The position numbers and the translations under genes were made by a program. Shown here in pieces: positions 2-20,857 of a stretch of DNA of 20,857 nt (positions are counted from its first letter, which is position 1; each line of letters opens with the position of its first letter). Under the pieces are notes generated by a model. It was not told where the DNA came from. It was given only the letters and a program-made list of their open reading frames with translations, and did no database searches. The stretch spans positions 1 through 20,857 of the IMG/VR virus record IMGVR_UViG_3300020205_002774; one strand, given 5' to 3'. The stretch comes from a virus.

Positions 2-202
2 ATGAACGCAGATTACTTTAGAAAACTGTCAGAAGCGCCGCAGGCACAGCCGAAGAAGGCTGACCCGGCGATACTTGAGGCGAAGATAGCGAAGTACCTC
101 GCTGCAGGTAAGACCATAACAACAATTCCACGCGGTGCCTCTGGGGTAGTACTTGCTCCGATGGGCATCAAGCGAACAGGCTTTAAAGGAGCACAGAGAT
201 GA
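2..202 (+). CDS. Small phage protein of unknown function
   Basis: This is a 66-residue, basic protein that I do not assign to a named family. Residues 24-48 (AILEAKIAKYLAAGKTITT, then IPRGASG) resemble a short motif seen in many small phage proteins, a helix followed by G-K-x-I-T-x-I-P-x-G; a small helix-turn-helix is possible but not shown. The ATG is at the second base of the window, so the ribosome-binding site cannot be seen and a longer N-terminus cannot be excluded. Its TGA overlaps the next start as ATGA, so it belongs to the same translationally coupled early cluster. Reality of the gene is likely; function is unknown. Confidence 0.6.
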   Translation: MNADYFRKLSEAPQAQPKKADPAILEAKIAKYLAAGKTITTIPRGASGVVLAPMGIKRTGFKGAQR

Positions 203-591
203 GCCAATTTTGTAAAATGTACGGCTGCCCAAAAGAGTCCCTGCAGTCAGAGGATTACTGCCAGACGCACTATCTGCGTCCCTACACGGAACACCTACAC
301 CCCAAGAAGAAACTACTTACGGCAGGAAACATTCTGCAAACAGCAGCGAAACACATGGAAGATCGTGCGGCGACATACGACCAGCAAGGTGGCGAAAGAA
401 GTATCCACAAGACCGTGACGATGTTTAACATCCTGACAGGTGCCGGGTTGACGGACGAGCAGGGTTGGCTTTTTATGACCTGCCTGAAAATGGTCCGTGC
501 GCAGCAGGGCAGATACCGAGCCGACAGCTATGAGGATGGTGCGGCGTACTTCGCGTTGGCAGGAGAGAGCGCAGCTCAGGAGCGGATATGA
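199..591 (+). CDS. Zinc-finger-like plus DUF6378-like phage protein
   Basis: A protein of 130 residues with two parts. The N-terminus has a possible metal site, C5, C10, C21 and H24 (CKMYGC then CQTH). Residues about 42-128 match my memory of the phage domain DUF6378: an ERS motif after a Y-D-Q-x-G-G turn, then FNILTG, a G-W-L-F-M block followed by K-x-V-R-A-Q-Q-G, and DSYEDGAAYFALAGE at the end. Proteins with this domain are common in phage early regions and have no established activity. AAGGAG at 186-191 sits 7 nt before the ATG. Both ends overlap their neighbours by 4 nt, which fits an operon. The domain name is from memory of the motif; the gene itself is secure. Confidence 0.75.
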   Translation: MSQFCKMYGCPKESLQSEDYCQTHYLRPYTEHLHPKKKLLTAGNILQTAAKHMEDRAATYDQQGGERSIHKTVTMFNILTGAGLTDEQGWLFMTCLKMVRAQQGRYRADSYEDGAAYFALAGESAAQERI

Positions 592-1159: not shown

Positions 1160-1461
1160 TACTGCTTTTTATGGGTTTAACACTCACCATGCTCACCGGC
1201 CTTGGGCTTGCCGCAGCGGCGATAAGAGAAGACAAGCTCAGATTTAGAGACGAAACCCCCAGCATCGATAAAGAACTACAGCTCAACGCCAAGATCAGGG
1301 AATTACAGGGGGTCAACCGGGTGGGCGACGAGTTGACGGAGCGATACAAGACTGTCGAGCACGTGGGGCGAGTGCGGGAGCAGACAGAACGTGTGCTGAT
1401 AGCGGGCTTAATCAAACAGTCCCGGACCGCCATCCTCGACAACAAGGAGCCAAAACAATGA
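1147..1461 (+). CDS. Small membrane-anchored protein with coiled-coil tail
   Basis: A 104-residue protein. Residues about 4-26 are a continuous hydrophobic stretch (ILLFMGLTLTMLTGLGLAAAA), a likely single membrane anchor or uncleaved signal, followed by charged residues. The rest is hydrophilic and helical, with heptad-like spacing that suggests a coiled coil. This is the architecture of phage-encoded inner-membrane proteins such as Rz-like spanins or superinfection-exclusion proteins, but nothing here separates those options. No lysozyme or holin neighbour is present, which argues mildly against a spanin. GAGGAG at 1133-1138 is 8 nt upstream of the ATG. Both ends overlap neighbouring genes. 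Confidence 0.65.
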   Translation: MTTAILLFMGLTLTMLTGLGLAAAAIREDKLRFRDETPSIDKELQLNAKIRELQGVNRVGDELTERYKTVEHVGRVREQTERVLIAGLIKQSRTAILDNKEPKQ

Positions 1462-1628
1462 ACGACATACCGGTAATTGAATGCCAGCACGAAGGGGTCC
1501 AGTTTACTTTCTTGTGCGACCGCTGCGGGAAAAAACATTATCACGGGGAAGGGGAGGGGCATAGGGTTGCTCACTGCCCAGCTTATCCAAATGGTTATAT
1601 TCTGAAAAAGGCGGAGCCTACACAATGA
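1458..1628 (+). CDS. 56-residue Cys/His-rich zinc-ribbon-like protein
   Basis: A short gene read directly from the sequence: ATG at 1458, overlapping the previous stop as ATGA, and TGA at 1626-1628 overlapping the next ATG. The 56-residue product has C9, H11, a C20-D-R-C23 knuckle, H27, H29, H35 and C40, in the pattern F-x-C-x-x-C-G-K-x-H-x-H-G-x-G-x-G-H-R-x-A-H-C. I recognise this pattern from small proteins of phages and bacteria that probably bind zinc; no function is established. AAGGAG at 1444-1449 lies 8 nt before the ATG. The tiling of overlapping starts and stops on both sides makes the gene credible despite its size. Confidence 0.7.
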   Translation: MNDIPVIECQHEGVQFTFLCDRCGKKHYHGEGEGHRVAHCPAYPNGYILKKAEPTQ

Positions 1629-1840
1629 GCGACGACGGCTACTGGTGGGTGCAGGTGTATTGGCGATGCACGAACTGGCAACTAGGGTACATCTACGAGG
1701 ACGGCAGGCCGTCCATCGGGTTTGTCTGTGTAGACGAGGATCAGGACGAACCCCCAGCAGGGGCTAACATCATTGAAGACCTCACGGATAAAGCACTTAA
1801 CGAGCTGAAAGCTGAGTTCTACAAAGTAATGAAAGAGTAA
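1625..1840 (+). CDS. Small acidic hypothetical protein abutting the repeat array
   Basis: An acidic protein of 71 residues with an aromatic N-terminal half (YWWVQVYWR at 6-14) and a helical acidic end. I do not recognise it. Its ATG overlaps the previous TGA, with GCGGAG at 1611-1616 about 8 nt upstream. The stop codon TAA at 1838-1840 supplies the first two bases of the first array repeat (AACGAGTCA starts at 1839). There is therefore no space for a separate promoter between this gene and the array, which suggests read-through transcription from the early operon, unless a promoter lies inside the coding sequence. Confidence 0.65.
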   Translation: MSDDGYWWVQVYWRCTNWQLGYIYEDGRPSIGFVCVDEDQDEPPAGANIIEDLTDKALNELKAEFYKVMKE

Positions 1841-2675
1841 CGAGTCATATGAGGCGAGAAACCCAACTCCCTGAAACGAGTCAGATAAGCGGAGAAAACC
1901 ATCGATATTGAACGAGTCATAGTGATTAAGAAAACCAGAATAAACGAACGAGTCAGACAACTAAAGAAAACCATAAAAGGAGAACGAGTCACTGACGTCA
2001 AGAAAACCATAGCTGCCAAACGAGTCAATCCTGTTTAGGAACCCAAACCATGCAAACGAGTTATAAAAAATAAGAAAACCATTCGATGAAAACGAGTCAA
2101 CAAACTTGAGAAAACCATCTCACGAAAGCGAGTCCCAGCGAGTTAGAAAACCTCACTCACGAAGCGAGTCAAAAGGCCAAAGAAAACCACGCAAGGGGAA
2201 CGAGTCACGAACACCAAGTAAGCCGTAAAAGGAGAACGAGTCAGCCTGTCGAAGAAACCCATATTAAACAAACGAGTCATCGGGGATAAGAAAACCAGCT
2301 TGGTCTAACGAGTCATCGGGGGAAAGAAAACCAATGAGAACAAACGAGTCATCATGCACGAGAAAACCATTCTATGAAAACGAGTCATCGAAACCAAGAA
2401 AACCAGTCAATTTAAACGAGTCAAGTAATTGAAGGAAGCCATAAGTCCCAAACGAGTCATATCAATTTAGAAAACCACATCATCGAAACGAGTCATAACT
2501 GGGAAGAAAACCATAATCTGAAAACGAGTCACGCAAAGATAGAAAACCAGTGATTGCAAACGAGTCAAGTAATTGAAGGAAACCATAAGTCCCAAACGAG
2601 TCATCAAAAAGAAGAAAACCAAACCCACCGAACGAGTCATGATTGTCCAGAAAACCAAAGGTGGAGAACGAGTCA
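1839..2675 (+). repeat. TIGR-type array: 23 dual-spacer 36-bp units plus a terminal half-repeat
   Basis: CGAGTC (or its variant) starts at 1841 and recurs every 36 bp without a single indel to 2669. Each unit is repeat 1 AACGAGTCA, spacer A (9 nt), repeat 2 AGAAAACCA, spacer B (9 nt). Spacers A/B by unit: 1 TATGAGGCG/ACTCCCTGA; 2 GATAAGCGG/TCGATATTG; 3 TAGTGATTA/GAATAAACG; 4 GACAACTAA/TAAAAGGAG; 5 CTGACGTCA/TAGCTGCCA; 6 ATCCTGTTT/AACCATGCA; 7 TAAAAAATA/TTCGATGAA; 8 ACAAACTTG/TCTCACGAA; 9 CAGCGAGTT/CACTCACGA; 10 AAAGGCCAA/CGCAAGGGG; 11 CGAACACCA/TAAAAGGAG; 12 GCCTGTCGA/TATTAAACA; 13 TCGGGGATA/GCTTGGTCT; 14 TCGGGGGAA/ATGAGAACA; 15 TCATGCACG/TTCTATGAA; 16 TCGAAACCA/GTCAATTTA; 17 AGTAATTGA/TAAGTCCCA; 18 TATCAATTT/CATCATCGA; 19 TAACTGGGA/TAATCTGAA; 20 CGCAAAGAT/GTGATTGCA; 21 AGTAATTGA/TAAGTCCCA; 22 TCAAAAAGA/AACCCACCG; 23 TGATTGTCC/AAGGTGGAG. 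The period, two alternating repeats and two spacers per unit match published TIGR arrays (tandem interspaced guide RNA). Confidence 0.9.
1839..2675 (+). ncRNA. Predicted precursor of 36-nt tigRNAs
   Basis: In known TIGR-Tas systems the array transcript is processed to 36-nt guide RNAs. Their repeats form a box C/D-snoRNA-like fold bound by the Nop domain of Tas, and both spacers pair with the DNA target. Here the array lies on the + strand between two + strand genes, so a rightward precursor is the simplest reading; strand is inferred from gene direction, not seen. The conserved blocks AACGAGTCA and AGAAAACCA both contain GA steps that could take part in a kink-turn, but they are not simply complementary to each other, so the fold is inference. 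No promoter was recognised upstream. Confidence 0.7.
2417..2596 (+). repeat. Duplicated array units (unit 17 at 2417-2452 and unit 21 at 2561-2596)
   Basis: Units 17 and 21 carry the same spacer A (AGTAATTGA) and spacer B (TAAGTCCCA) and differ at one base, in repeat 2 (AGGAAGCCA against AGGAAACCA). They share the G at the third base of repeat 2, which is otherwise seen only in unit 6. This marks them as copies of each other, placed exactly four units (144 bp) apart. Confidence 0.9.
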
Positions 2676-2707
2676 AACAACAACTAACTAGAAAAGAGAA
2701 CAACACG

Positions 2708-3574
2708 ATGAGCGATATAAGAACGATGGTACGCGGGGCGTACGACATACAGAAACTGAGAATCCAGATGGGTAACCGCATTGTTGCCAACTGGAAAGCA
2801 AAGCTGGGGCAAGCACCCAGTGCTACAGAGGAGACGCTAGACGCAGCCGAGAAAACTTTGCTAGACGATCTGCGGGATTCCTATAAGAAGTTGGCGGATG
2901 GCGTAGCGACACTACCACGCCAGTCCACGTTCAAGGGCGACGAGCTGATAAGCACCTACACCGAACTTGTTTTGATAGATCAGTACCTGAGCCTCGAAGA
3001 TCAGGAGAACAAACAGTTCAGCCGATTGAAGAACGTGCTCAAAGACTTCCCGGTTTACAACGAGTTTCTGGTAAACGTGTACGGCGTAGGGCCAGCAATG
3101 GCAGGAGTCATTGTGTCGGAGATCGATATCCACGCAGCGCAGTACCCGTCCAGCTTGTGGAAGTACGCGGGGCTCGACGTAGCCGGTGACGGGCATGGGC
3201 GTTCAAAACGTAAAGAGCACCTAGAGGAGTCAACGTACTTAGACAAGGATAAAAAGGAGCAGACGAAGATGGGCATCACGTTCAACCCGTTTCTGAAGAC
3301 CAAGCTAGTCGGTGTTCTGGGTTCATCGTTCCTTAAGCAGAGCGCGGTTAAGTGCCCGTACCGTAAGATATACGACGACTACAAGCACCGCTTGGAGAAC
3401 AGCCCCGCACACGCAGAGAAAAGTAAAGGGCATCGCCACAGCATGGCAGTACGCTACGCAGTAAAAAGATTTCTAGCAGACCTGTACGTTGCATGGCGCA
3501 CCCTCGAAGGATTACCAGTAGCTAACGAGTACAGCGTTGATAAACTGGGTATCGTTCATCGCTTAGCTGCGTGA
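2708..3574 (+). CDS. tas: Tas protein of a TIGR-Tas system (Nop/IS110-like, no nuclease domain)
   Basis: A 288-residue protein. Residues 1-115 are charged and largely helical, probably a coiled coil. Residues 118-156 carry the signature of the IS110-family C-terminal domain (Transposase_20): YGVGPAMAGVIVSEID at 125-140, then SSLWKYAGL at 148-156. A basic GRSKRK stretch (164-169) and a helical C-terminus with RHSMAVRYAVKRFLADLYVAWR follow. IS110 proteins and Tas proteins share this fold with the Nop domain of box C/D snoRNPs, which binds guide RNA. The N-terminal DEDD/RuvC-like catalytic domain of IS110 transposases is absent, and I see no HNH motif, so this would be a nuclease-less Tas. An ATG at 2573 in the same frame exists, but its extra 45 codons are array sequence. 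ATG 2708, 32 bp after the last repeat and with AAGAG at 2694-2698, is the better start. Alternative: a degenerate IS110 transposase, made unlikely by the array. Confidence 0.85.
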   Translation: MSDIRTMVRGAYDIQKLRIQMGNRIVANWKAKLGQAPSATEETLDAAEKTLLDDLRDSYKKLADGVATLPRQSTFKGDELISTYTELVLIDQYLSLEDQENKQFSRLKNVLKDFPVYNEFLVNVYGVGPAMAGVIVSEIDIHAAQYPSSLWKYAGLDVAGDGHGRSKRKEHLEESTYLDKDKKEQTKMGITFNPFLKTKLVGVLGSSFLKQSAVKCPYRKIYDDYKHRLENSPAHAEKSKGHRHSMAVRYAVKRFLADLYVAWRTLEGLPVANEYSVDKLGIVHRLAA

Positions 3575-3650
3575 CAACGAGCACGAAACCCTCGGCCCAC
3601 CATTAATAACGTAATGGGTGCGCAGTCACGGGGCCGGGGGCCTTATAACT
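3575..3650 (+). other. Structured intergenic element after tas (nested inverted repeats)
   Basis: CCCTCGGCCC at 3589-3598 pairs with GGGCCGGGGG at 3631-3640 over ten positions, with one G-T (G-U) pair. Inside it a second perfect hairpin, CCATTA/TAATGG (3600-3605 with 3612-3617), has a 6-nt loop. No run of T follows, so it is not a classical intrinsic terminator. Directly before it, at about 3576-3591, AACGAG and GAAACC occur close together like a collapsed copy of the two array repeats. It could end the array-tas transcript, protect it, or be a separate small RNA; which is not visible. Confidence 0.55.
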
Positions 3651-3666
3651 AATGAGGAGAAATCAA

Positions 3667-3975
3667 ATGAATGAAAACACAGCGCCCGTGATGTCCGCCA
3701 CGAAAAAGAAGTGGTGGCAGTGGCACCAAGACAACCCACAGGTCTACGAGATGTTTAAGAAGTTTACGTTTCAAGCAGTGGGTCGTAGGCACAAGCGGTT
3801 GAGTGCTTGGCTGATCGTGAACCGAATACGGTGGGAAACAAGCATCGAGACTACAGGCGTAGACTTTAAGATATCGAATAATTTTATTGCGTACTACGCT
3901 CGGCTTTTTATGCTGGACCACCCGCAGTACAAGGACTTTTTTGCTACTAAGAAAATGAAGGACGACGAAGAGTGA
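3667..3975 (+). CDS. Conserved hypothetical phage protein
   Basis: A 102-residue, mostly helical, basic protein. The pattern W-x-x-H-Q-D-N-P-x-V-Y-E-M-F-x-x-F (residues about 16-33), then RLSAWLIVNRIRWE (45-58), DFKISNNF and ARLFMLDHPQYKDFF near the end is one I recognise from many phage and prophage proteins with no assigned role. An in-frame ATG at 3652 exists, but GAGGAG at 3654-3659 lies 7 nt before the ATG at 3667 and overlaps the earlier start, so 3667 is preferred. The TGA overlaps the GTG start of the DNA polymerase gene (GTGA), placing it as the first gene of the replication module. Confidence 0.75.
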   Translation: MNENTAPVMSATKKKWWQWHQDNPQVYEMFKKFTFQAVGRRHKRLSAWLIVNRIRWETSIETTGVDFKISNNFIAYYARLFMLDHPQYKDFFATKKMKDDEE

Positions 3976-5885
3976 AACTAATAGTAGGAGACTTTGAAAC
4001 GTACTGGTCGCAGACACACTCGCTGTCTAAGATGAGTCCCATAGACTACGTGATGCACCCGGATACAGAAGTCATTTCACTGTCCCTCAAGGTAGATGAC
4101 GAGCCGACACGGGTATGGTTTGGCGAAGCGGCCATACGCAAACGCTTACAAGCGCAAGACTGGTCGGATGTGATGTTAGTCGCGCATAACATGTCAGCGT
4201 TTGACGCGATGCTTTTTGCGTGGCGATTTAATGTACAGCCCAAGGTATGGGGGTGCACGCTGGCAATGGCCCGACCCATCCACAGCAAGACCTGCGGGAA
4301 CTCGTTAGCCAAGCTGGTCGAGCACTACGGTCTCGGGGTGAAAGACAACACCGCCCTACTCAACACCAAAGGCAAACACCTGTGCGACTTCACGAACACA
4401 GAACTGCTGGCGATGGAGGGGTACAACCGCGACGACACTGACCAATGCCACGGCCTGTTCCAAGCCCTGAAAAAGCACTACAACGCCGAAGAGCTATGGC
4501 AGATCGACAGCACGATACGGATGCTGGTAGAGCCGAAGTTCATGTTGAGCCGACAGGTACTGGATAAGGCACTCAGCGATGTCAGGATTCAGAAGCAGCA
4601 GGCGTTGGCGCAGATGGCGAGCGTGCTCTACGAGATGGAGGTAGATGACAACCCAGCGGTAGAAGAAGTTGTTCGCAGTAAGTTGGCGTCCACCGCGCAC
4701 TTCAGTAAGCTGCTGCGGGCCAGAGGCGTCCGGGTACCCATGAAGCAGAGCCCATCAAACCCAGAGAAAAGGATACCTGCGCTGTCTAAAACAGACGAAG
4801 CGTTCCTTGCACTGCAGGAGCACGAAGACCCGGTGGTTGCATTGGCAGCGAGCACGCGACTGGACGTTAAGTCAACAATACTGGAGACCCGGCTGGAGTC
4901 GTTCCTTACAACGGGTAAGGCGCTGCGCGGAAGACTGCCGATCCCACTCCATTACTGTGGGGCCGACACAACGGGCCGGTGGTCAGGCTTCATGTACAAC
5001 CCGCAGAACCTGCCGCGCATAGACCCGAGCAAGCCCAAGCTGTCTGACGCGCTGCGTAAGTCGATGGTAGCCCCGCCCGGATACAAGGTAGTGGTAGCCG
5101 ATTTGTCCGGTATTGAGCTGAGAGTTAATCACTTTCTGTGGAAGGTTCCGAGTTCGATGGCGCTGTACCAAGCGTCACCAGACAAGGCCGACCTGTACAA
5201 GGACTTTGCGCACAGGTTGTATAGGGTGGAGCTAGAGGAAGTAACAAAGCCGCAGCGGCAGATAGGCAAGGTCGCGCACTTGGGACTAGGGTTCGGAGCC
5301 GGGGGCGGCGCATTTCAGAAAGTGGCTAAGACCATGGGCGGCATAGACTTGTCGTTAGAAGCAGCCCAAGCGATTACCACGCAGTGGCGTGACGCATACG
5401 AAGACATTGTGCTTGGGTGGCGCAGGTGCCATGAGATGCTACAATTCATAAGTCAGGGAGACCGCTTGACTATTGACCCGTGGGAGTTGATGGAGACATC
5501 TGCAGAGGGCATACACCTGCCATCTGGGCGCGTAATACGTTACCCCCTACTGCGAGAAGAAGTTAATGAAAACGGCCGGAGCGAGTGGGTGTACGGCACT
5601 GGCCGCCACCAAGCGAGAATATACGCGGGTAAGGTGACGGAGAATTGTGTTCAGGCGTTGGCGCGCGACGTCATTGCCGGTAACGCATATCAGATGTACA
5701 AGCAGACTAAGCTGCGCCCGAGTTTGGCAGTGCACGACGAGCTGGTTTACATAGTGCCCGAGAGCGACGCCGTTGCTGCGCTTGAAACGCTGCAAACAAT
5801 AATGCGAACACCTCCAGTCTGGTGGCCGCAGTTGATAACGTGGTCCGAAGGCGACATTGCCGACACCTATGGAGATGCTAAGTGA
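3972..5885 (+). CDS. polA: DNA polymerase, family A, with 3'-5' exonuclease
   Basis: A replicative phage polymerase of 637 residues with no 5'-3' exonuclease domain. The proofreading domain is visible: Exo I DFET (D7, E9), Exo II AHNMSAFDAML (about 72-82), Exo III YNRDD (Y151, D155). The polymerase domain has motif A DLSGIELR with D377, motif B RQIGKVAHLGLGFG with R429 and K433, and motif C VHDE with D589. At the positions equivalent to E. coli Pol I 762 and 766 it has Leu437 and Phe441, where E. coli has Phe and Tyr. Leu at 762 is a known class of viral PolA in environmental phages. The GTG start overlaps the previous TGA, and its own TGA overlaps the next GTG. Identification is firm; the thumb region is shorter than in E. 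coli Pol I. Confidence 0.95.
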   Translation: MKLIVGDFETYWSQTHSLSKMSPIDYVMHPDTEVISLSLKVDDEPTRVWFGEAAIRKRLQAQDWSDVMLVAHNMSAFDAMLFAWRFNVQPKVWGCTLAMARPIHSKTCGNSLAKLVEHYGLGVKDNTALLNTKGKHLCDFTNTELLAMEGYNRDDTDQCHGLFQALKKHYNAEELWQIDSTIRMLVEPKFMLSRQVLDKALSDVRIQKQQALAQMASVLYEMEVDDNPAVEEVVRSKLASTAHFSKLLRARGVRVPMKQSPSNPEKRIPALSKTDEAFLALQEHEDPVVALAASTRLDVKSTILETRLESFLTTGKALRGRLPIPLHYCGADTTGRWSGFMYNPQNLPRIDPSKPKLSDALRKSMVAPPGYKVVVADLSGIELRVNHFLWKVPSSMALYQASPDKADLYKDFAHRLYRVELEEVTKPQRQIGKVAHLGLGFGAGGGAFQKVAKTMGGIDLSLEAAQAITTQWRDAYEDIVLGWRRCHEMLQFISQGDRLTIDPWELMETSAEGIHLPSGRVIRYPLLREEVNENGRSEWVYGTGRHQARIYAGKVTENCVQALARDVIAGNAYQMYKQTKLRPSLAVHDELVYIVPESDAVAALETLQTIMRTPPVWWPQLITWSEGDIADTYGDAK

Positions 5886-6550
5886 AGAACCCAACGTGGT
5901 CGTTCAGTGCCATTAAGTTGTTTGAACAGTGCCCGAGGAAGTACTACCACCTCAAGATCAAGAAGGACGTTAAAGACGAGCAGCACGAAGCGGCGCTGTA
6001 CGGCGAGCAGTTTCACGAGGCGGCAGAGTTTTACGTGTCCGACCAAGCGGAGCTACCAAAGCAGTTCTGGTTTGCCAAGACGGCGCTGGACAAGCTCAAA
6101 GCCCTGCCGGGTGAGAAGCTGTGCGAGTACAAGATGGGGCTGACGGAAGACCTTGAGGCGTGCGACATGGATGACCCCAAGGTGTGGTGGCGCGGTATAG
6201 CAGACCTCAGTATCATCGACGGAACAAAGGCGAAGGTGCTCGACTACAAAGCGGGCAAGAGTGCCAAGTACGCAGACACTGACCAGTTAGAGCTGATGGC
6301 GTTGGCAACGTTCAAGCACTTCCCGCAGGTTGAATCAGTCGATGCGGCGCTGTTCTTTGTGATAGCCAAAGCGTTCATACGCAAGAAGTACCTGCGAGAG
6401 GACGCGCCGGGGCTGTGGGCGAAATGGTTGAAGCGGTACGGACGGATATTAACGGCGATAGAATCCGGGGTCTGGAACCCCAAAACATCAGGGCTGTGTA
6501 AGAAGTACTGCGTAGTACTAAGCTGCCCTCATAACGGGAGGAACATGTGA
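5882..6550 (+). CDS. PD-(D/E)XK nuclease, RecB/Cas4-like with four-cysteine Fe-S motif
   Basis: A 222-residue nuclease of the PDDEXK_1 (Cas4/RecB) type, which degrades or trims DNA ends in a metal-dependent way. Visible motifs: SFSAIKLFEQCPRKYY at the N-terminus with C17; YGEQFHEAAEF with the first metal-ligand His; RGIADLSIID with Asp; VLDYKAGK (the D-x-K core); and TDQLELMALATF (the Q motif). C206, C210 and C215 at the C-terminus, with C17, give the split one-plus-three cysteine arrangement of Cas4/AddB Fe-S nucleases. The GTG start overlaps the polymerase stop, pointing to a role in replication or recombination. Although Cas4 relatives help CRISPR adaptation, there is no cas1/cas2 here. 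Any link with the TIGR array is speculation. Confidence 0.88.
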   Translation: MKNPTWSFSAIKLFEQCPRKYYHLKIKKDVKDEQHEAALYGEQFHEAAEFYVSDQAELPKQFWFAKTALDKLKALPGEKLCEYKMGLTEDLEACDMDDPKVWWRGIADLSIIDGTKAKVLDYKAGKSAKYADTDQLELMALATFKHFPQVESVDAALFFVIAKAFIRKKYLREDAPGLWAKWLKRYGRILTAIESGVWNPKTSGLCKKYCVVLSCPHNGRNM

Positions 6551-13035: not shown

Positions 13036-13239
13036 ATGGATTTGGCCCCCGATGGTTTACGCATGGTGGTGAACTGGAAGACCTTTGATCCCGGGTGTTC
13101 TGTGTTCGTCCCCTGCCTCGATATGGTGGAAGCCGTTTCTCAATTTTATGAGATCGCACAGCGCAAGGGCTGGCTGTGCGACCACCGGTACCGGATAGAA
13201 AATAAACTGCAGGGGGTTCGGTTCTGGAGACTGGCCTAA
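13036..13239 (+). CDS. Small phage protein
   Basis: A 67-residue protein. FDPGCSVFVPCLD (16-28) and GVRFWRLA at the end resemble a small phage protein family of unknown function in which W-x-x-x-x-x-G-x-S-V-F-V-P is followed by a V-R-F-W-R end. A longer reading from ATG 12979 would overlap the end of the primase gene; ATG 13036, after a G-rich stretch with GGGGGGTGG, is preferred. Its TAA overlaps the stop of the opposite-strand virion gene by 4 bp, so this is the last gene of the rightward module. Confidence 0.6.
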   Translation: MDLAPDGLRMVVNWKTFDPGCSVFVPCLDMVEAVSQFYEIAQRKGWLCDHRYRIENKLQGVRFWRLA

Positions 13240-16200
13240 AACCCCCAGTCTTCCGCACGCTCTAGGGTATTGCCGCGCATTCTCTCGTCCGGCAATCTAC
13301 CCCTAATCATTTTCTGCGTGTTGTTGTCCCTGCCTTTAATGGACTGGCGCAAGCCATCGGAAGTCATACCAAACTCTGGATAGCGCGCGTTAAACTCAAT
13401 TATCTTCTCTATCGCCTGCGCAACGCCACCGGTATCTCCAACGCGGTACGCAACGTAGACCGCTTCGTAAAGCCCGGTTCGCTTGGTTTTTATTCTGCGC
13501 TCGGCGTTAGAGTCCCCGACATTAAAGTCCATGGTTCTAGCGTAATCGGCCGGGGCAAACCCAAGCGCTTGTGACAGCGCGCCGAAGGGAGTGACCTCCG
13601 TAACGACATCGCCCCGCATCGTCTCAACAGCACCTTCTGTTAAGAACCGCGCGGACTTGAACAAGTTAGAGAACGACGCGGGCAACATACTTTCTACCCC
13701 ACGCTGGATATCCCCGTCTGCGATTAACCCGGCGCCGCGATACGCCCTGCTAACCGACCCATATGCAGGCCCGCCAAAGTGGGCGGCAACAATGTCAGCC
13801 AACGTCGCATCGTTCGGCAAGTTAGAGTCGCGGATCAAGAGATTGGTCATCTCCATTCGCCCTGCGACGTTAGCGTTGAAGAGCAGGTTGGGTATGCCCT
13901 CAACCAGTATCGGATCGAGGTGCGTGCGCAGGAAGTTTTCCAGCGAGTTGTCTTCGTCTTCTTCCCCAAAGAGCGCCCCGTACATTGCCCACAACCCGGC
14001 GACGGCACCCATCATCGGCATACCTTTTACCCCAACCATCGCCGCAGAAGTTAGCATGGTGTACGCAGCAAACTTGCGAGCTGCAGCCTTCACTTCCGGG
14101 TCGTCATTCATGGTGGCGTCATAGGCTGTCTTTGTTTGCAAGTACATCTGCAGCGCCGCAAACCGGCGGTACATGAACGCTATACGCGCAACGTCTTGCT
14201 GTTGGAACCGAGCGCCTGTTACTGCGGTTGATCCTCCGTTGAGCAGCAAACTCATGTCCATAGCCTTTTGAGCAGCGGCCTCCATTTGTTCCGGTGTCGG
14301 GTTGGCCCCTAGCGTTGACAACTCCAAGTCGTACGCGGTCTTTAATCCGATCTCTCGTTTGAAGCGCTCACTGGCGTTCATCATGAACCCCATTCGTGCT
14401 GACCACTTAGACAAGGGGTTACTTTCGCCAAACTCCGCCGATTCAGCCAGCTCAGAGTACCGCTCGGAGTGACCGGCCTCGCGCACCTTATCTACTAACG
14501 GTTTAAGATAGCCGTACTTTTTCTGCTGCGCCGGGTCGTTAAAGTCTATGTTGAGCACGGAAGGCAGCGTTTTTCTGCGCACCGTGTCCCTCCCCTTTGT
14601 CCCCAGTGTCTGCAGCACTTCTTGCAGCGCGGCGCCTTCCAGACCTTGGGTTACCAACGTCTCCACATCTGCTGACGTGCCCATGCCCAGTATGTCTTTT
14701 GCAGCGGCCATCATCACCCGGTGAGTCTTTGCAAACCCGTAGGTTCTTGTCAGGTACGGGCCGGTGACGAGCACGAGTGAGGACATATCCACGATGGCTG
14801 AAGAGACGTTAAACCCCAACGTCCACCCATAGGTGCCAGTTGTGAACAGGTTTGACCACCAGCTTTGACTTGGGTTGGCAGAGTACTTAGCCCGCTTGGC
14901 AATGTCATCTACGATAGAGACTACCGTCGCGTCATTTCCCATGTTTTCGCGCGTGGCCTTCATGTTCTCAACTTCTTTGTTAAGCTGCGCGCCGTACTCC
15001 ATGTTAATCAGCTTTCGGCCGAGCCCTATCGTGCCTTCTTGAAACGCCCAGAACGGGTCACGTATATACCCTGCAACTTCTTTACGTGAAGCAAGGCGCT
15101 CCAGTACCGAATTGGACGGGGACATAGCAACCCCCAGAGCCATAACGGATTCAATCAACGCCGTTTTGGCGTCGCCATCTTCGACCTTGCTCTCTTTGAG
15201 GGTGGTTATAAGCTGCCCAAGGAAACTGGAAGGCACGACCCCATCAAAGGCACGAAGGTCACCGCCTATGAACGGCTTGATGTCTTTGTCACTAATACCC
15301 TCTTCAAGGAGCTGCTGCCTGCGCGCTGCTTGGTCGTTGGGGTTTGTGAATATCTCAAACGCCGGTTCGCCGTTTTTCTGGACGTACTTCAGCATGTGCT
15401 TACCGCTCGGACGCAGCATCGGCGCGTAGCCTTCAAGGGGCCCCTTCTCCCGCATCTGCTTAACAAACTCGTTTTGAATCCGAGTTGCCATCGCTTTGTC
15501 TTGGGTTGCATCGTACACGCGGTTGAACACTTGCTGAGAAATCTGCTTAAACTGTCGATTGTGGATTACGCGCATCTGCCTATAGATAGCCTGCCCTGCT
15601 GGGCCAATGGCATCGTATTGCTTCTTCAGTTTGCGGTACGCGGTAAGTTTCTCCGGGTTCCCTACGTATTCGCTTTCAGGCTTGGTCAAGTCCACCCGAG
15701 CGTGAGACCCCCCAAAGTACAAGTCTGTCATGGCCGCGTACTTATCCGCATTCTTTAATTTCCACTCCCCCATCCGGGTAATCTGTGCAGTGATACCATC
15801 AGTAAACTGCTTCATTGCACCTTCAAACTTAACAGCGGTTTCTGTGTAACGCTTCATGGCGTCGGCAAATAGCGCGTACGCAGGACCCTTGGTCCTAATG
15901 TACGACTGCACGTAATCGTTTAGTGCGGGGAGCGGAAGTCCCCACGTCAGCACAGTACGCGCGGCGTTACCTGCCGCAGAGCCCGTTGACGTGCCCATCA
16001 CCTTGGCTACAGCATCACGCACGGGCTTTGACCGCATGGGTTTAGACGTGGAGTTGAGCTGAGCGCCCTGCACATTCAGGAAGCGGTTGTTGGCCGTAGG
16101 AGACGGGTCGGTGAGAGCCTGCTCGGCTGCCTTTTGAGTTCTTGTGGTGTTTTCAGCCTTGCCCATACGCTTTGTCAGGTCAAGAAGCTCCTCCACCGTG

Positions 16201-19200
16201 CCGGACTTAGCCGCCGGTAGGCCAACAACACGGCGTATGGCGTCAACAAATCGACCCCACCAGTTTTGCCGTTTGAGGAGGCTTCGGAACTTTGGATTTG
16301 TTATGCCTTCGGCAACAAACTCGTAGGGGTTTTCAAAGCCGTACGCATCAGACTCCGGGTGCTGCCCCGTGTACTGTTCAAACAACCGCACTATTCGCTT
16401 GCCTTCAGGGGTGCCCCGGGCAATAGCGTTGACTGTCATGGGGTGCACAAACTCGTGCACAAAAGTCTGTGCAACCGATTCGGCTCGCGGGTCCAGATAG
16501 ATCGCCTCGTCGCCTTTAGACGGGTGCACGTACTCGCCAACTTCATCCACTGCCTCAAACCTTTTACTGAACACAGGCACATTGATATCCGGCGCAGCTC
16601 GCAGCATCGCAGCGGCCATGTCTCGCAGGTCTTGCGGCAAGTCTTTATCTTTTATGATGGCACGCAGTATCTGCGCCGGTGTCGCCCCCTCCTCAACTAG
16701 CTGCATAATGCGCTTGTTGGCTGGGATATCCGCAGCTTCTTCGCGCTTGGGTTGGACGGCGTTAAACTTGCCGGGTAGCGCAATCTCGCTGCGCCCTTGG
16801 TCGCTGGCGTATTCGTTGTAGATGTCAACTTGTTTGGGCAACGGGAGCTGCGAGATCGCCCCTGCCGCATCACCAGTGGGTGCCTTCCCCATAACCCTTT
16901 GAAACGCTTGCGCAAGTTGGGCTTTATTCGCGCCACCAATCGCGCGAGTGAGTTTCGTTCTAAACGCTTGCTCTTCTTTTGCCACCGGCGTAGTTGACTC
17001 AACAGCGGGTTCAACGACGGGCTTAGCAGTTTTAACGGCCTCTAGCACCCGGTCAACGTCCCGCATTGCCAAATCAAGTTTTAAGTGCAGTTGCGCTGGA
17101 AATGGCCTGATCTCGCCAGATGCAATGCCTTCGCGTGCCATAGCCACCACAGAGTCAAATGGGGCAAAACTGCCATTACCCATTTGAACGTCCCCCGGCT
17201 TCTCGTCTTTTTGTGACAGGGACAGCAGTTCTTTTTCTGCTTCGCTGCGACCGTCGCCGATTGATGTAAATTTTGATGGCCGCACGGGCTCGACAACTGA
17301 TTCACCCGGCGACTCTCCGAGCAACTGCTCAATAAACTTGTCGGTTTCGGTTTTGGGGGCAGCGGGCGTTTCAACTGCTGTGGATACAGGCACTTTGTCC
17401 TGTTCCGCTTTAATAATCTCGGCGGCTCGGGCTTTTTCAAGTGCAGTTTCCATCAGCGCTTGATCCCGCGCATCTTGTCTAGGCTTGGCCCGTTTTATAT
17501 TTTCACGCGCCTTGGCAAGAACTTCGGTTTCCGTTAGCAAGGGCACAGAGATACTATCTGCAAGGGCAGTAACTGACGCAGCAACATCCGGGGCGACCCC
17601 GGGAGCTGCAGCATACGTAGTCAACTCTGCTTTAGCCTTCGCGGGGGTCTTGCTCTTCGCCACGCGCTTTGTGACGGGTGCACCTTTTGGCACCCCAGCA
17701 GCAACAAGCTCGGCTTCGGTCGGCGGAGTGAAATCCAACTGTAACTGTTCCTGCTCTTGAGAGTCCGCCGCTTTCGCATCTTCGTCCCGTAATGCCAGAT
17801 CGTTTTCTTCCCTTGCTTGTTGTCTAGCCATGGTTTCAGCGACCCTCGGGGCGTCGCTTGTTGCTGCCTCAAGTTCAGCCGGGAAAAGATCACCGGCGTC
17901 CCGTTGCTGCTGCGCTTGTTCTTGCGCGGCTCGTGCTTCATCTGCGCGCGCTCTGGCAATAGCGTCGTTTAAGGTCATCTGCCCTGCCGCTTCTTGCTCG
18001 TTCCGCGTTGCTGCTGGAGGCATAGGCTGCGCAGCGTTACGCTCTTCCGCAGTCGTAGACGGGGTCGGTACTGGACCGGATACCGGTGCTTCTGCGGTAT
18101 CAAACAACTCTTGCTGTTCAGGGGCACGCGTAACGGTCGACGCTTTGGCCATGGCGTCGACAATGGTTTTAATATCAAACGGTTTTGCCGCAACTTCCAG
18201 CTTACCCATTTCATCTAAGAACGCATTGGGAGATGCCGCGTTGAGCGGCTGCCGCATACGCACAGCTCCATTAGGGTCAACTAGCTCACTAAACAGCTTG
18301 CCGCTGGGCTCTTGCACAAGGCGCATAACGCCGTTCTCGCCGCCACCAGTCATAGAGACAGGGATGTTTACTGTACGCAATGGAGGCGCAGGGGGTGCGG
18401 GCGGGGCTTGTTCTTCTCCCGCTGCAGGGGGCGGGGTTACACCGGCCGAACGGTCTCGAATACCGAGTTCGACTATGGCGGCGACAAGGCCGCCTACGCC
18501 AGCGCCAAGACCCAGCGATTCTCCCGTATTAGTAAAGGTACCCTGCTCGGGGTCGTATATCCCCTGCGCAATCAAGTTCTGCGCGATCTCACTGGCAGCT
18601 TCCTGCAGACCTTCTTCTGTAGCCGATACGCCTACACGGCCCATTCGGCTTGCTATATTTGTAGCGAGTTTTGGCCCAGCCGCTTTTTCCAACCCTTTTA
18701 CTACACCTTCAGCAGGCTTTCTCAGACGGCTCAGTATCCGAGCAGGAGCCACCATTTCTGCTGCGCCGGGGAGAATGCCAAGTGCAGTTGCTTGAGCACG
18801 TTCTTCTCCAGTTGCACCTGCTTGTTCTGCACGAGTTCTTGCCGTACCTGCGCCGGAAGCGGAACCAAGTGCAACGCCACTGGCGACGCGAGCCGCTACG
18901 CCGGGTAGACCGCCCGTCAATACAAACGGAACTGTTGAACCTAAAGCCTCACCCACTGTACCCGCCAAGCTATCTTCATAACCGGCTTTGGGCTGGAACG
19001 AGGACGCCGCGCTCTCGGCTGCGCCAGAAATCAAATCGCGCAGGTACGCCTCTTCTTCATCAGGCAGCATTGCACTGGCCCCGATACCGGCAGTCTCCAG
19101 CAGCCCGATGGCCCCGCGAGGAATACCGCGAAAGAACTCCCCCGCTTGGCCCATGAGCGTGCGCTCTACAGGTTCTTGCTCCGGCGGCTGAACTTGACCT

Positions 19201-19301
19201 TGTAACTGCCGAACAAGATTGGCCAACTTGGCAGCCGCTGCGGTATCCCCCGCGTCGTGGGCATTTTTAAAAGCGGTTATTGCACGCTGCAAGTCGGCCA
19301 T
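13236..19301 (-). CDS. Giant virion-type polyvalent protein with HEFVH metallopeptidase motif
   Basis: A protein of about 2021 residues, probably packaged in the virion and delivered with the DNA, as large internal or polyvalent phage proteins are. The first 290 residues include Gly/Ala-rich hydrophobic segments (such as VPFVLTGGLPGVAARVASGVALG). Residues about 300-900 are low-complexity, Ala/Pro/Glu/Lys-rich linkers. A zinc peptidase core follows: HEFVH at 949-953, then NPYEFVAEG at 991-999 that could give the third ligand. The C-terminal 1000 residues are mostly helical with hydrophobic runs near the end (TMLTSAAMVGVKGMPMMGAVAGLWAMYGALFG) and resemble large polyvalent protein-associated domains. 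A TTG at 19307 is possible, but ATG 19301 has AGGA about 8 nt upstream and is preferred. The gene lies 4 bp downstream of the neighbouring virion gene, so the two are co-transcribed. Confidence 0.82.
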   Translation of the reverse strand: MADLQRAITAFKNAHDAGDTAAAAKLANLVRQLQGQVQPPEQEPVERTLMGQAGEFFRGIPRGAIGLLETAGIGASAMLPDEEEAYLRDLISGAAESAASSFQPKAGYEDSLAGTVGEALGSTVPFVLTGGLPGVAARVASGVALGSASGAGTARTRAEQAGATGEERAQATALGILPGAAEMVAPARILSRLRKPAEGVVKGLEKAAGPKLATNIASRMGRVGVSATEEGLQEAASEIAQNLIAQGIYDPEQGTFTNTGESLGLGAGVGGLVAAIVELGIRDRSAGVTPPPAAGEEQAPPAPPAPPLRTVNIPVSMTGGGENGVMRLVQEPSGKLFSELVDPNGAVRMRQPLNAASPNAFLDEMGKLEVAAKPFDIKTIVDAMAKASTVTRAPEQQELFDTAEAPVSGPVPTPSTTAEERNAAQPMPPAATRNEQEAAGQMTLNDAIARARADEARAAQEQAQQQRDAGDLFPAELEAATSDAPRVAETMARQQAREENDLALRDEDAKAADSQEQEQLQLDFTPPTEAELVAAGVPKGAPVTKRVAKSKTPAKAKAELTTYAAAPGVAPDVAASVTALADSISVPLLTETEVLAKARENIKRAKPRQDARDQALMETALEKARAAEIIKAEQDKVPVSTAVETPAAPKTETDKFIEQLLGESPGESVVEPVRPSKFTSIGDGRSEAEKELLSLSQKDEKPGDVQMGNGSFAPFDSVVAMAREGIASGEIRPFPAQLHLKLDLAMRDVDRVLEAVKTAKPVVEPAVESTTPVAKEEQAFRTKLTRAIGGANKAQLAQAFQRVMGKAPTGDAAGAISQLPLPKQVDIYNEYASDQGRSEIALPGKFNAVQPKREEAADIPANKRIMQLVEEGATPAQILRAIIKDKDLPQDLRDMAAAMLRAAPDINVPVFSKRFEAVDEVGEYVHPSKGDEAIYLDPRAESVAQTFVHEFVHPMTVNAIARGTPEGKRIVRLFEQYTGQHPESDAYGFENPYEFVAEGITNPKFRSLLKRQNWWGRFVDAIRRVVGLPAAKSGTVEELLDLTKRMGKAENTTRTQKAAEQALTDPSPTANNRFLNVQGAQLNSTSKPMRSKPVRDAVAKVMGTSTGSAAGNAARTVLTWGLPLPALNDYVQSYIRTKGPAYALFADAMKRYTETAVKFEGAMKQFTDGITAQITRMGEWKLKNADKYAAMTDLYFGGSHARVDLTKPESEYVGNPEKLTAYRKLKKQYDAIGPAGQAIYRQMRVIHNRQFKQISQQVFNRVYDATQDKAMATRIQNEFVKQMREKGPLEGYAPMLRPSGKHMLKYVQKNGEPAFEIFTNPNDQAARRQQLLEEGISDKDIKPFIGGDLRAFDGVVPSSFLGQLITTLKESKVEDGDAKTALIESVMALGVAMSPSNSVLERLASRKEVAGYIRDPFWAFQEGTIGLGRKLINMEYGAQLNKEVENMKATRENMGNDATVVSIVDDIAKRAKYSANPSQSWWSNLFTTGTYGWTLGFNVSSAIVDMSSLVLVTGPYLTRTYGFAKTHRVMMAAAKDILGMGTSADVETLVTQGLEGAALQEVLQTLGTKGRDTVRRKTLPSVLNIDFNDPAQQKKYGYLKPLVDKVREAGHSERYSELAESAEFGESNPLSKWSARMGFMMNASERFKREIGLKTAYDLELSTLGANPTPEQMEAAAQKAMDMSLLLNGGSTAVTGARFQQQDVARIAFMYRRFAALQMYLQTKTAYDATMNDDPEVKAAARKFAAYTMLTSAAMVGVKGMPMMGAVAGLWAMYGALFGEEDEDNSLENFLRTHLDPILVEGIPNLLFNANVAGRMEMTNLLIRDSNLPNDATLADIVAAHFGGPAYGSVSRAYRGAGLIADGDIQRGVESMLPASFSNLFKSARFLTEGAVETMRGDVVTEVTPFGALSQALGFAPADYARTMDFNVGDSNAERRIKTKRTGLYEAVYVAYRVGDTGGVAQAIEKIIEFNARYPEFGMTSDGLRQSIKGRDNNTQKMIRGRLPDERMRGNTLERAEDWGF

Positions 19302-19311
19302 TATCAAGTTC

Positions 19312-20857
19312 CTACGGAGTAGAGTACTGGTCCAAAAGGGACTGCGTTTCTGCGTCTACGGGTGACGCGGTTCCACCCGCAGCGTTGAGCACTTCTTGCA
19401 CGGCGGCAGCTAGGGTTTTTGTACCGGTAAGATCATCCGCTACTATACGCTGGGCAATTGTCAAAACCTGCTGCGGGGTCATGCTATTTCTGACAGCAGC
19501 CTCATTTACGGCAGCTTCTAGTGCCGCAGTCCGCTCGGCACTAAGACCTTCACGGGTCAGCGTCTGCCTCATCTCCTCGATGGTCATCTCCTGCTTCAAC
19601 CTAGCTGTGTCTTGATCCAAAGCCGCAAGAGCTCGCAGCTCATTGCTGTGAATCTCTGCCGCAGCCTGCTCGGCTTCAAACTGCCCAATACCCAGAGCAC
19701 GCAGCTCATTGATTGTTTTGTCCATGTCCGCAATAACTCGCTGCTGCGCAGTGTCACGTTCCCCGGCAATAATTTCCTCTTCCCCGGCAATTCCAGAGCT
19801 AAATCCGCCAAATCCTCTACTAGCGAGACCCGCAAGACCTGCTCGCAGCAAGCGGCTGCGCTCTTGTTCAGGGCTAAACCGTGCTTCTTGAAGCGCACGC
19901 AGGCGATCTTGTTCAACCCTGCGCTCTCTAATCGCATCCTCCATTCCGGTCAGTTCGCGGTAGCGCGAGCCTGCGTCCGTTGAACCGACAGTCCCTTCAA
20001 CTCTTGCGCGCAGTTGGCTCTCCGCGGTGTTCGTTGGGGCAGCGGCAGGTGCAGCGTTGGAAGCAGCGGCACGGGCAGCGGTGGGAGCAGCGACACCCAC
20101 GTTCCTGTCGGGCCGCTGGTCTACCCCTCGCATTCTGAACTCTGGTTGTGCCCGCTGTGAATCAATACCCACGCCAAACATACTGGGTTGCTGGGCAGTG
20201 GGGGTAGCTGCTGCTGGTTCATCTCCTTCACCCCCAAACATATTTGACAGCGCTAAACCACCACCGCCAATAACGGCTCGCCCCGCTGGAGTCATTGCCG
20301 CCTTTGCACCACGGTACATCATCGGAAGCGCGCGCGTAAGTGCGGTACCCGCGACGCCAAGCGGGGCTCCTAGCCCAGAGGCAGTAAGCGCCATTAACCC
20401 GGCGTCTACTGGGTTTTCTTGGATATACTCCGCCGTGTCAAAAATGGCTTGCCCCTTACCGCTGCGCGGGGTGTTGAGCATCGATTCTATTTCTGCATCT
20501 GTCATATAGCCAAACCGCCTTGCGGGCTCGCTTGCAGGGGATGGTGCACGTGGTATGGGCCCCTCTTGCGCACTCTCCCTTCGAGCTACGGCGTCTTCAA
20601 GTTGTGCCGCTAAGTCTTCTCTCCCCGGGACCGGGGACGGGAGGGTCGGTGTGGGTCTCTGCGCTACTCCATTTCTGCTGGGACGGGCTTCGGCAATAGC
20701 TATGACTCGCGCAGTTTCTGGGGGGACGCCCGCGTCTACTAACTCACTTTCCCTTCGGGCTACTGCGTCTGCGTATGCGGCGTCAAAGTCTTCTCTCCCC
20801 GGGACCGGGAACGGGAGGGTCGGCGTAGGTCTCTGCGCTATTCCATTTCTGCTGGGG
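19312..20857 (-). CDS. Partial virion-type protein; 5' end beyond the window
   Basis: The reading frame is open without a stop from 19312 to the right edge, so at least 514 residues are present and the true start is outside. The methionine at 20505 is internal: upstream codons continue a repeated sequence. The visible N-terminal 117 residues hold two 58-residue repeats containing P-S-R-N-G-x-A-Q-R-P-T-P-T-L-P and D-A-V-A-R-R-E-S. The middle is Ala/Pro/Thr-rich with Gly-rich hydrophobic segments, and the last 230 residues are long charged helices typical of coiled coils. This suggests an internal virion or DNA-injection protein, inferred from composition and from the position beside the giant protein; no named family is recognised. 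Confidence 0.7.
   Translation of the reverse strand, partial: PSRNGIAQRPTPTLPFPVPGREDFDAAYADAVARRESELVDAGVPPETARVIAIAEARPSRNGVAQRPTPTLPSPVPGREDLAAQLEDAVARRESAQEGPIPRAPSPASEPARRFGYMTDAEIESMLNTPRSGKGQAIFDTAEYIQENPVDAGLMALTASGLGAPLGVAGTALTRALPMMYRGAKAAMTPAGRAVIGGGGLALSNMFGGEGDEPAAATPTAQQPSMFGVGIDSQRAQPEFRMRGVDQRPDRNVGVAAPTAARAAASNAAPAAAPTNTAESQLRARVEGTVGSTDAGSRYRELTGMEDAIRERRVEQDRLRALQEARFSPEQERSRLLRAGLAGLASRGFGGFSSGIAGEEEIIAGERDTAQQRVIADMDKTINELRALGIGQFEAEQAAAEIHSNELRALAALDQDTARLKQEMTIEEMRQTLTREGLSAERTAALEAAVNEAAVRNSMTPQQVLTIAQRIVADDLTGTKTLAAAVQEVLNAAGGTASPVDAETQSLLDQYSTP
20571..20857 (-). repeat. 174-bp direct repeat coding for 58-residue units
   Basis: TCTTCTCTCCCCGGGACCGG starts at 20615 and again at 20789, 174 bp apart, followed by near-identical sequence to the window edge. 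The similarity also extends upstream (20571 onward against 20745 onward). 174 is 58 codons, so the frame is kept. More copies may lie outside the window. Confidence 0.8.

What the first reader, a model, noticed from the sequence alone, without database searches (positions are those of the whole stretch)
2708..3574. Tas protein without any visible nuclease domain
The protein keeps the GVGP...AGL core but the N-terminal 115 residues are charged helices with no D-E-D-D, RuvC or HNH motif. It may act by binding only: blocking transcription of host or rival genes, steering phage gene expression, or recruiting another nuclease. A Ser at 166 in the GRSKRK stretch lies roughly where IS110 enzymes have their active Ser, but equivalence is not established.
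Basis: partly seen in the sequence, partly recalled or inferred. Interest (0 to 1): 0.85.

Follow-up and report, generated by a model that had tools for sequence, protein, structure and literature searches.

The report
Nuclease-free RNA-guided phage protein (TasA)
A virus of bacteria carries a small protein of a recently described RNA-guided family that has no cutting domain, next to a bank of 23 short guide pairs, so it most likely finds DNA by guide RNA and blocks it rather than cuts it; the kind is known, but what such systems target in nature is still open.

Summary
The 288-aa protein at 2708-3574 is a solo Nop-domain Tas protein, i.e. TasA of TIGR-Tas, with a 23-unit TIGR array just upstream (1839-2675). 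It passes NCBIfam's TIGR-Tas model, and its AlphaFold model (pLDDT 86.5) superposes on TasH and TasR only downstream of their HNH and RuvC domains, leaving nothing for a nuclease. Nuclease-free TasA is published and is the commonest Tas type, so this is a known kind. The Ser166/IS110 idea is not supported: the IS621 serine falls opposite H163. No neighbouring gene is constant enough to be a recruited nuclease. The window's guides do not match its own genome. Beyond the finding, I pooled 970 distinct spacer pairs from 82 of 91 related sequences. Spacers A and B of one unit share a codon phase only if read on opposite strands with a gap of 2 (mod 3) (6 of 2000 shuffles), and jointly spell Shine-Dalgarno...ATG more often than mispaired spacers (34 of 1000). 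A small set of 120 new pairs repeated neither signal. Candidate targets (a structural gene; DUF3310 genes) are leads, not proof. Best reading: RNA-guided binding that silences genes of other phages.

The parts
2708..3574 (+). tasA: solo Nop-domain Tas protein, 288 aa, no nuclease domain
   Evidence: NCBIfam NF052498 TIGR_Tas_endo 126.8 bits, cut-off 100; hmmsearch vs PDB: TasR 9mty 8.7e-25, TasH 21kl 3.7e-17; fold search
2711..3040 (+). residues 2-111: long helices = coiled-coil part of the Nop fold, starting where the RuvC of TasR and the HNH of TasH end
   Evidence: model secondary structure; model 1 to 285-286 = TasR 111-317 and TasH 68-301
3203..3205 (+). codon of Ser166 (GRSKRK stretch); conserved in at least 90% of 63 sequences, but not opposite the IS621 serine
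1839..2675 (+). TIGR array: 23 units of 36 nt (edge 9, spacer A 9, loop 9, spacer B 9) plus a last edge repeat; starts right at the stop codon of ORF 1625-1840
2415..2450 (+). unit 17, spacer pair AGTAATTGA/TAAGTCCCA, same pair as unit 21; exact match (gap 4) to DUF3310-like genes of other phages
2559..2594 (+). unit 21, second copy of that spacer pair
3589..3640 (+). predicted RNA structure just after tasA (three-way-junction fold also predicted for L002 and L024); function unknown
   Evidence: z -1.88 here, -2.94 in L002, -1.04 in L024; L003 folds differently

Best explanation
The locus is a phage-borne TIGR-TasA system. The array is transcribed with tasA and cut into 36-nt tigRNAs; a TasA dimer holds one tigRNA by its edge and loop repeats; spacer A pairs with one strand and spacer B with the other strand of a short duplex target, which is unwound and bent. 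As there is no nuclease, the effect is occupancy: block of transcription (or replication) of target genes, most likely genes of competing phages. Shown here: membership, fold, absence of a nuclease domain, array anatomy, no self-match. Inferred from the family: processing, dimer, RNA binding, opposite-strand targeting. Suggested here by statistics: natural guides obey the opposite-strand rule with a gap of 2 (mod 3) and lie largely in coding DNA, some over ribosome-binding site and start codon. Not shown: binding, silencing and the identity of the targets.
For: Family: NCBIfam model passed; PDB hits to TasR and TasH; superposition Z 19.7-19.9. Array units of the same register in 82 of 91 sequences. 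Self-match: 1 hit at up to 3 mismatches, mispaired control 1.95. Guide geometry: codon-phase coherence of A and rc(B), gap 2 mod 3, z 2.79, 2 of 1000 within-locus shuffles; gaps 0 and 1, same-strand reading and next-unit pairing show nothing. With all 982 pairs 6 of 2000. Shine-Dalgarno-N4-9-ATG across the two spacers: 9 against 2.9 (none of 100 free shuffles reached 9), while the other three geometries gave 0-3 and next-unit pairing 1; with stricter within-locus shuffles 8 against 3.96, 34 of 1000. A published precedent for silencing between phages by a nuclease-free RNA-guided protein is VIPR (PMC13142463, abstract and section 8 read), an unrelated protein.
Against: An independent set of 120 new spacer pairs repeated neither signal (codon z -0.99; start-site motif 0 against 0.39), though it was small. 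Tests on near-identical spacer variants gave no overall codon signal (z 0.88 at gap 2). Direct search of 970 pairs in the 1.88 Mb held found no clear excess beyond loci that had been fetched by the patterns themselves. No target is proven, and no binding or silencing was tested.
Confidence: 0.62

Rival explanations
1. TasA finds the target and a nuclease encoded elsewhere (phage PDDEXK or resolvase-like protein, or a host enzyme) cuts the opened DNA.
For: A PDDEXK gene lies at 5882-6550 and has homologues in 22 of 65 tasA loci; a small Hjc-like ORF lies within three genes of tasA in 14 of 91 loci (Pfam 20.2 bits, below its cut-off of 21.1, in the one tested).
Against: No family is near tasA in more than 19 of 91 loci; many contigs are cut short, so this is a lower bound. 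Such nucleases are ordinary in phage replication modules (recalled).
Confidence: 0.1
2. The system regulates the phage's own genes, for example an early-late switch.
For: tasA sits in a replication module next to a family-A DNA polymerase, the same neighbourhood as in L002 and L003.
Against: The 22 distinct guides give 1 hit at up to 3 mismatches in the window, mispaired 1.95; over the other loci together 124 against 105.8. The window may be only part of the genome (20.9 kb).
Confidence: 0.1
3. TasA silences host genes (for example defence genes) rather than other phages.
For: Nothing excludes it: host genomes were not searched with the guides, as the host is unknown.
Against: None direct.
Confidence: 0.12
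4. The bend of the target DNA serves recombination or integration (an RNA-guided aid to an integrase), or the protein is a relic of an IS110 recombinase.
For: Structural kinship to IS621 (Z 13.7); the integrase idea is put forward in PMC12045711 (section 10).
Against: IS110 NCBIfam model far below cut-off (19.6 against 140 bits); no DEDD half. The Pfam scans of 12 window ORFs showed no integrase; the large ORF 13236-19307 and other ORFs were not scanned.
Confidence: 0.06

Closest known systems
TIGR-TasA (e.g. FpTasA, Flavonifractor plautii; PMC12045711)
   Same: Solo Nop-domain protein beside a dual-repeat array with 9-nt spacers and 36-nt units; such systems are found mainly in mobile elements, phages included.
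   Different: Sequence not compared with FpTasA itself; array upstream of tasA; edge AACGAGTCA and loop AGAAAACCA do not begin with the UG of TasR arrays; guides hint at a 2-bp gap between the two half-sites.
TIGR-TasR (9mty)
   Same: Same Nop fold, Z 19.7, rmsd 2.0 over 194 residues.
   Different: No RuvC domain; the model begins opposite TasR residue 111.
TIGR-TasH (9w04, 21kl)
   Same: Same Nop fold, Z 19.9.
   Different: No HNH domain; the model begins opposite TasH residue 68.
IS110/IS621 bridge-RNA recombinase (8wt6)
   Same: Related C-terminal fold, Z 13.7.
   Different: No DEDD half, serine not opposite Ser166; an array of guides where IS110 has one bridge RNA.
VIPR (PMC13142463)
   Same: Phage-borne, RNA-guided DNA binding used for repression; a model for how silencing between phages works.
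   Different: Unrelated protein (RAMP, per the paper's section title) and a different RNA code (alternating GGY/NN, abstract).

Membership tests
TIGR-TasA | Nop-domain Tas protein | tested here: met
   NF052498 above cut-off; Z 19.7-19.9 to TasR/TasH
TIGR-TasA | no RuvC or HNH domain fused | tested here: met
TIGR-TasA | adjacent array of two alternating 8-12-nt repeats with about 9-nt spacers, 36-nt unit | tested here: met
   23 units, 9+9+9+9
TIGR-TasA | edge and loop repeats with box D (UG) start and box C (CCA) end, or covarying variants | tested here: inconclusive
   loop ends CCA, edge ends TCA; neither begins with UG
TIGR-TasA | array followed by a rho-independent terminator | tested here: inconclusive
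   the array runs into tasA; no terminator-like site on the + strand in 1400-4100
TIGR-TasA | binds processed 36-nt tigRNA | not testable with these tools
   needs pull-down and small-RNA sequencing
TIGR-TasA | spacers A and B pair with opposite strands of adjacent half-sites | tested here: inconclusive
   statistical support in 862 and 982 pairs, not repeated in 120 new pairs
IS110 recombinase | DEDD RuvC-like N-terminal domain | tested here: not met
   absent from the Pfam scan; NF033542 19.6 bits, cut-off 140; model residue 1 aligns to IS621 residue 128
IS110 recombinase | catalytic serine in the C-terminal domain | tested here: inconclusive
   a weak alignment puts it opposite H163, not S166
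VIPR | guide of alternating GGY/NN motifs | tested here: not met
   array units are dual-repeat 36-mers

The most novel reading that the evidence does not exclude
Natural TasA guides read a 20-bp target (9 + 2-bp gap + 9, opposite strands) in coding DNA and over the ribosome-binding site and start codon of genes of rival phages, several guides tracking alleles of one gene through synonymous sites; TasA thus is a nuclease-free, programmable gene silencer used between phages, and the array holds the record of its targets.
Probability: 0.27. Interest if true: 0.78.

Novelty: new member of a known kind. Interest (0 to 1): 0.42.

Why it matters
What TasA does, and what natural tigRNAs target, is stated as open in the founding paper (section 10). 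A large set of phages with TasA and readable arrays makes that question testable by computation: the guides can be treated as a code, with mispaired spacers as an internal control. It also shows that NCBI's model would label such nuclease-free proteins 'RNA-guided endonuclease'.

Tried and rejected
Targets among the TasA phages themselves: no excess over mispaired spacers (at gaps 0-4, exact hits 0 against 0). Targets in L098 and its relatives: only the pattern's own unit stood out. All-pool search, 158 sequences, 1.88 Mb: real counts exceed mispaired mainly through loci fetched with the patterns themselves. Codon periodicity in differences between near-identical spacer pairs: not significant overall; all-synonymous pairs 6 at gap 2, null mean 1.9, maximum 5 in 20 simulations, but the six come from only two families. 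Stop-free frames: z 2.77 at gap 0 only, no pattern, not used. AYC guide family (L012-L017): 6 contigs, none exact to an observed pair; best are 1 mismatch, among them a terminase gene (L097) and an HNH-like gene (L094). Guide shared by L002 and L004 (CTAGAACGA/TAATAATAG): 3 contigs, gaps 1, 1 and 4, nothing convincing. First AlphaFold model with 23 sequences was poor (pLDDT 60.1) and was replaced. PADLOC: no match. Rfam: no match. The statistical tests were exploratory and several were run, so the shuffle counts are nominal; redundancy was cut only by dropping pairs within five differences of a kept one.

Full report
What is there. The ORF at 2708-3574 (+) encodes 288 residues. Upstream, at 1839-2675, lie 23 units of exactly 36 nt: edge AACGAGTCA, 9-nt spacer A, loop AGAAAACCA, 9-nt spacer B, and a final edge repeat. 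The array begins at the stop codon of ORF 1625-1840. Units 17 and 21 carry the same spacer pair; units 4 and 11 share spacer B.

Family. PHROGs call the protein a transposase family (phrog_4285, 1.5e-39). NCBIfam's TIGR_Tas_endo model is passed (126.8 bits, cut-off 100), IS110's is not (19.6 against 140). A profile of 63 sequences finds TasR (8.7e-25) and TasH (3.7e-17) in the PDB and IS621 only weakly (0.72). By its own sequence alone the protein found TasR at 7.9e-12.

No nuclease. The AlphaFold2 model from 63 sequences has mean pLDDT 86.5 and pTM 0.79. Foldseek's twelve best rows are eleven TasH/TasR chains and one IS621 chain. VIA-align gives Z 19.9 for TasH 68-301 and 19.7 for TasR 111-317 against model residues 1 to 285-286, 13.7 for IS621, 7.1 for the archaeal Nop5 3pla (by the tool's note, Z under about 13 may mean only a common helical arrangement). 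Ser166 is conserved in at least 90% of 63 sequences, but the IS621 ESG serine falls three residues earlier, opposite H163.

What is known. Faure et al. 2025 (PMC12045711; sections 4, 6, 7, 8, 10 and legends read; passages of section 5) define TasA as the solo Nop form, the commonest effector, binding 36-nt tigRNA; its function is called 'less apparent', with blocking of transcription or replication, or aid to integrases, proposed. My literature searches found no further paper on TasA targets in the held library; most papers of subscription journals are missing from it.

Relatives and context. 25 viral loci came from the single protein, 80 kept of 119 from the profile, 8 genome contigs. Units were extracted from 82 of 91 sequences: 1261 units, 970 distinct pairs (the extraction looks for this repeat family, so units with other repeats are missed). 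In the window's clade the array is upstream, in the loci of the L011-L023 group that show it downstream. tasA sits in a replication module (family-A polymerase, PDDEXK, SNF2 helicase, DUF927). Homologues of polA occur in 23 and of the PDDEXK gene in 22 of 65 tasA loci, but no family is within three genes of tasA in more than 19 of 91.

Geometry of natural guides. From the paper (8-nt 3' overhangs, cut 5' to the base paired with the fifth spacer base) I derived that the target reads A, gap, reverse complement of B. Mispaired spacers are an internal control. (i) Codon-phase coherence: among 862 non-redundant pairs, z 2.79 for a gap of 2 modulo 3 (2 of 1000 within-locus shuffles), nothing for gaps 0 and 1, for same-strand reading, or for B paired with A of the next unit; the window's clade alone (90 pairs) gives 3 of 300. 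The test cannot tell A+rc(B) with gap 2 from rc(B)+A with gap 1. (ii) Start-site motif: Shine-Dalgarno, 4-9 nt, ATG across the two spacers, 9 against 2.9, none of 100 free shuffles; the other orders 0-3, next-unit pairing 1. This favours A+rc(B). With within-locus shuffles and all 982 pairs the figures are 6 of 2000 for (i) and 8 against 3.96, 34 of 1000, for (ii). A separate set of 120 new pairs from the last scan repeated neither (z -0.99; 0 against 0.39). Its expected strength was low (by my estimate about z 1 and one or two sites), but it does not help. I rate this as suggestive.

Candidate targets. (a) Guide CCATACACA/ATTGGCGGA of L002 (tasA 97% identical to the window's) matches exactly, gap 2, a gene in L098, in frame for I-G-G-T-V-Y-G; the variant in L004 differs at two synonymous sites of that frame. 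L098 comes from the same IMG sample number, 3300046006, as the TasA locus L007. Six homologues match with one mismatch. But the scan gave 4 contigs in all over three gaps, about what chance gives by comparison with the other scans, and no other guide stood out in that gene neighbourhood. (b) The window's duplicated guide AGTAATTGA/TAAGTCCCA matches exactly 34 contigs; 26 at gap 4, of which 25 show the same DUF3310-like core (KVI[DE]AWDL; Pfam checked in one, L128; in four of the 25 no ORF of 80 aa or more was called). A family of ORFs that Pfam places near DUF3310 (one checked, L006, 23.8 bits against a cut-off of 24) also occurs within three genes of tasA in 15 of 91 loci. Against it: gap 4 exceeds what TasR tolerates in vitro (1-2 bp, section 7) and differs from the gap seen in the codon test. 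Both are leads.

Self and host. The window's 22 distinct guides give 1 hit at up to 3 mismatches in the window, mispaired mean 1.95, so self-regulation is unlikely on the part of the genome held. Host genomes were not searched, since the host is unknown.

Verdict. Real, correctly described, ordinary as a kind: a TasA. The mechanism that fits best is guide-directed binding that silences genes of competing phages; the protein, fold and array are shown, the binding and silencing are inferred, and the target rule is suggested by statistics that need an independent repeat.

Noticed in passing
window 3589-3640; L002, L024 after tasA: A predicted three-way-junction RNA fold right after the tasA stop, the same fold in L002 and L024, with paired changes in one stem (ATTA/TAAT in the window, ACTA/TAGT in L002); no Rfam match in the window.
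   Followed up: partly
window 2708-3574: NCBIfam NF052498 names its members 'RNA-guided endonuclease' but its 215 positions match this nuclease-free protein over residues 4-264, so TasA proteins will be mislabelled.
   Followed up: partly
L023, L018, L005, L079 arrays and others: Pairs of near-identical guides inside one array (for example TTGAAGGTG/AAGAGCGCA and TGGAAGGCG/AAGAGTGCA in L023), as if alleles of one target were tracked.
   Followed up: partly
L012-L017 arrays: Four guide variants whose differences are synonymous for xAHxAYC when read with a 2-bp gap.
   Followed up: partly
window 1839-2675, all arrays: The last base of both spacers is biased to A (42% and 52% over 970 pairs), perhaps part of the RNA-binding motif rather than the target.
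   Followed up: no
window 20571-20682 and 20745-20856: Two 112-bp direct repeats, 85% identical, at the end of the record.
   Followed up: no
window 199-591: PHROG label 'phosphofructokinase' for a 130-aa protein that Pfam files as DUF6378; the label looks wrong.
   Followed up: no
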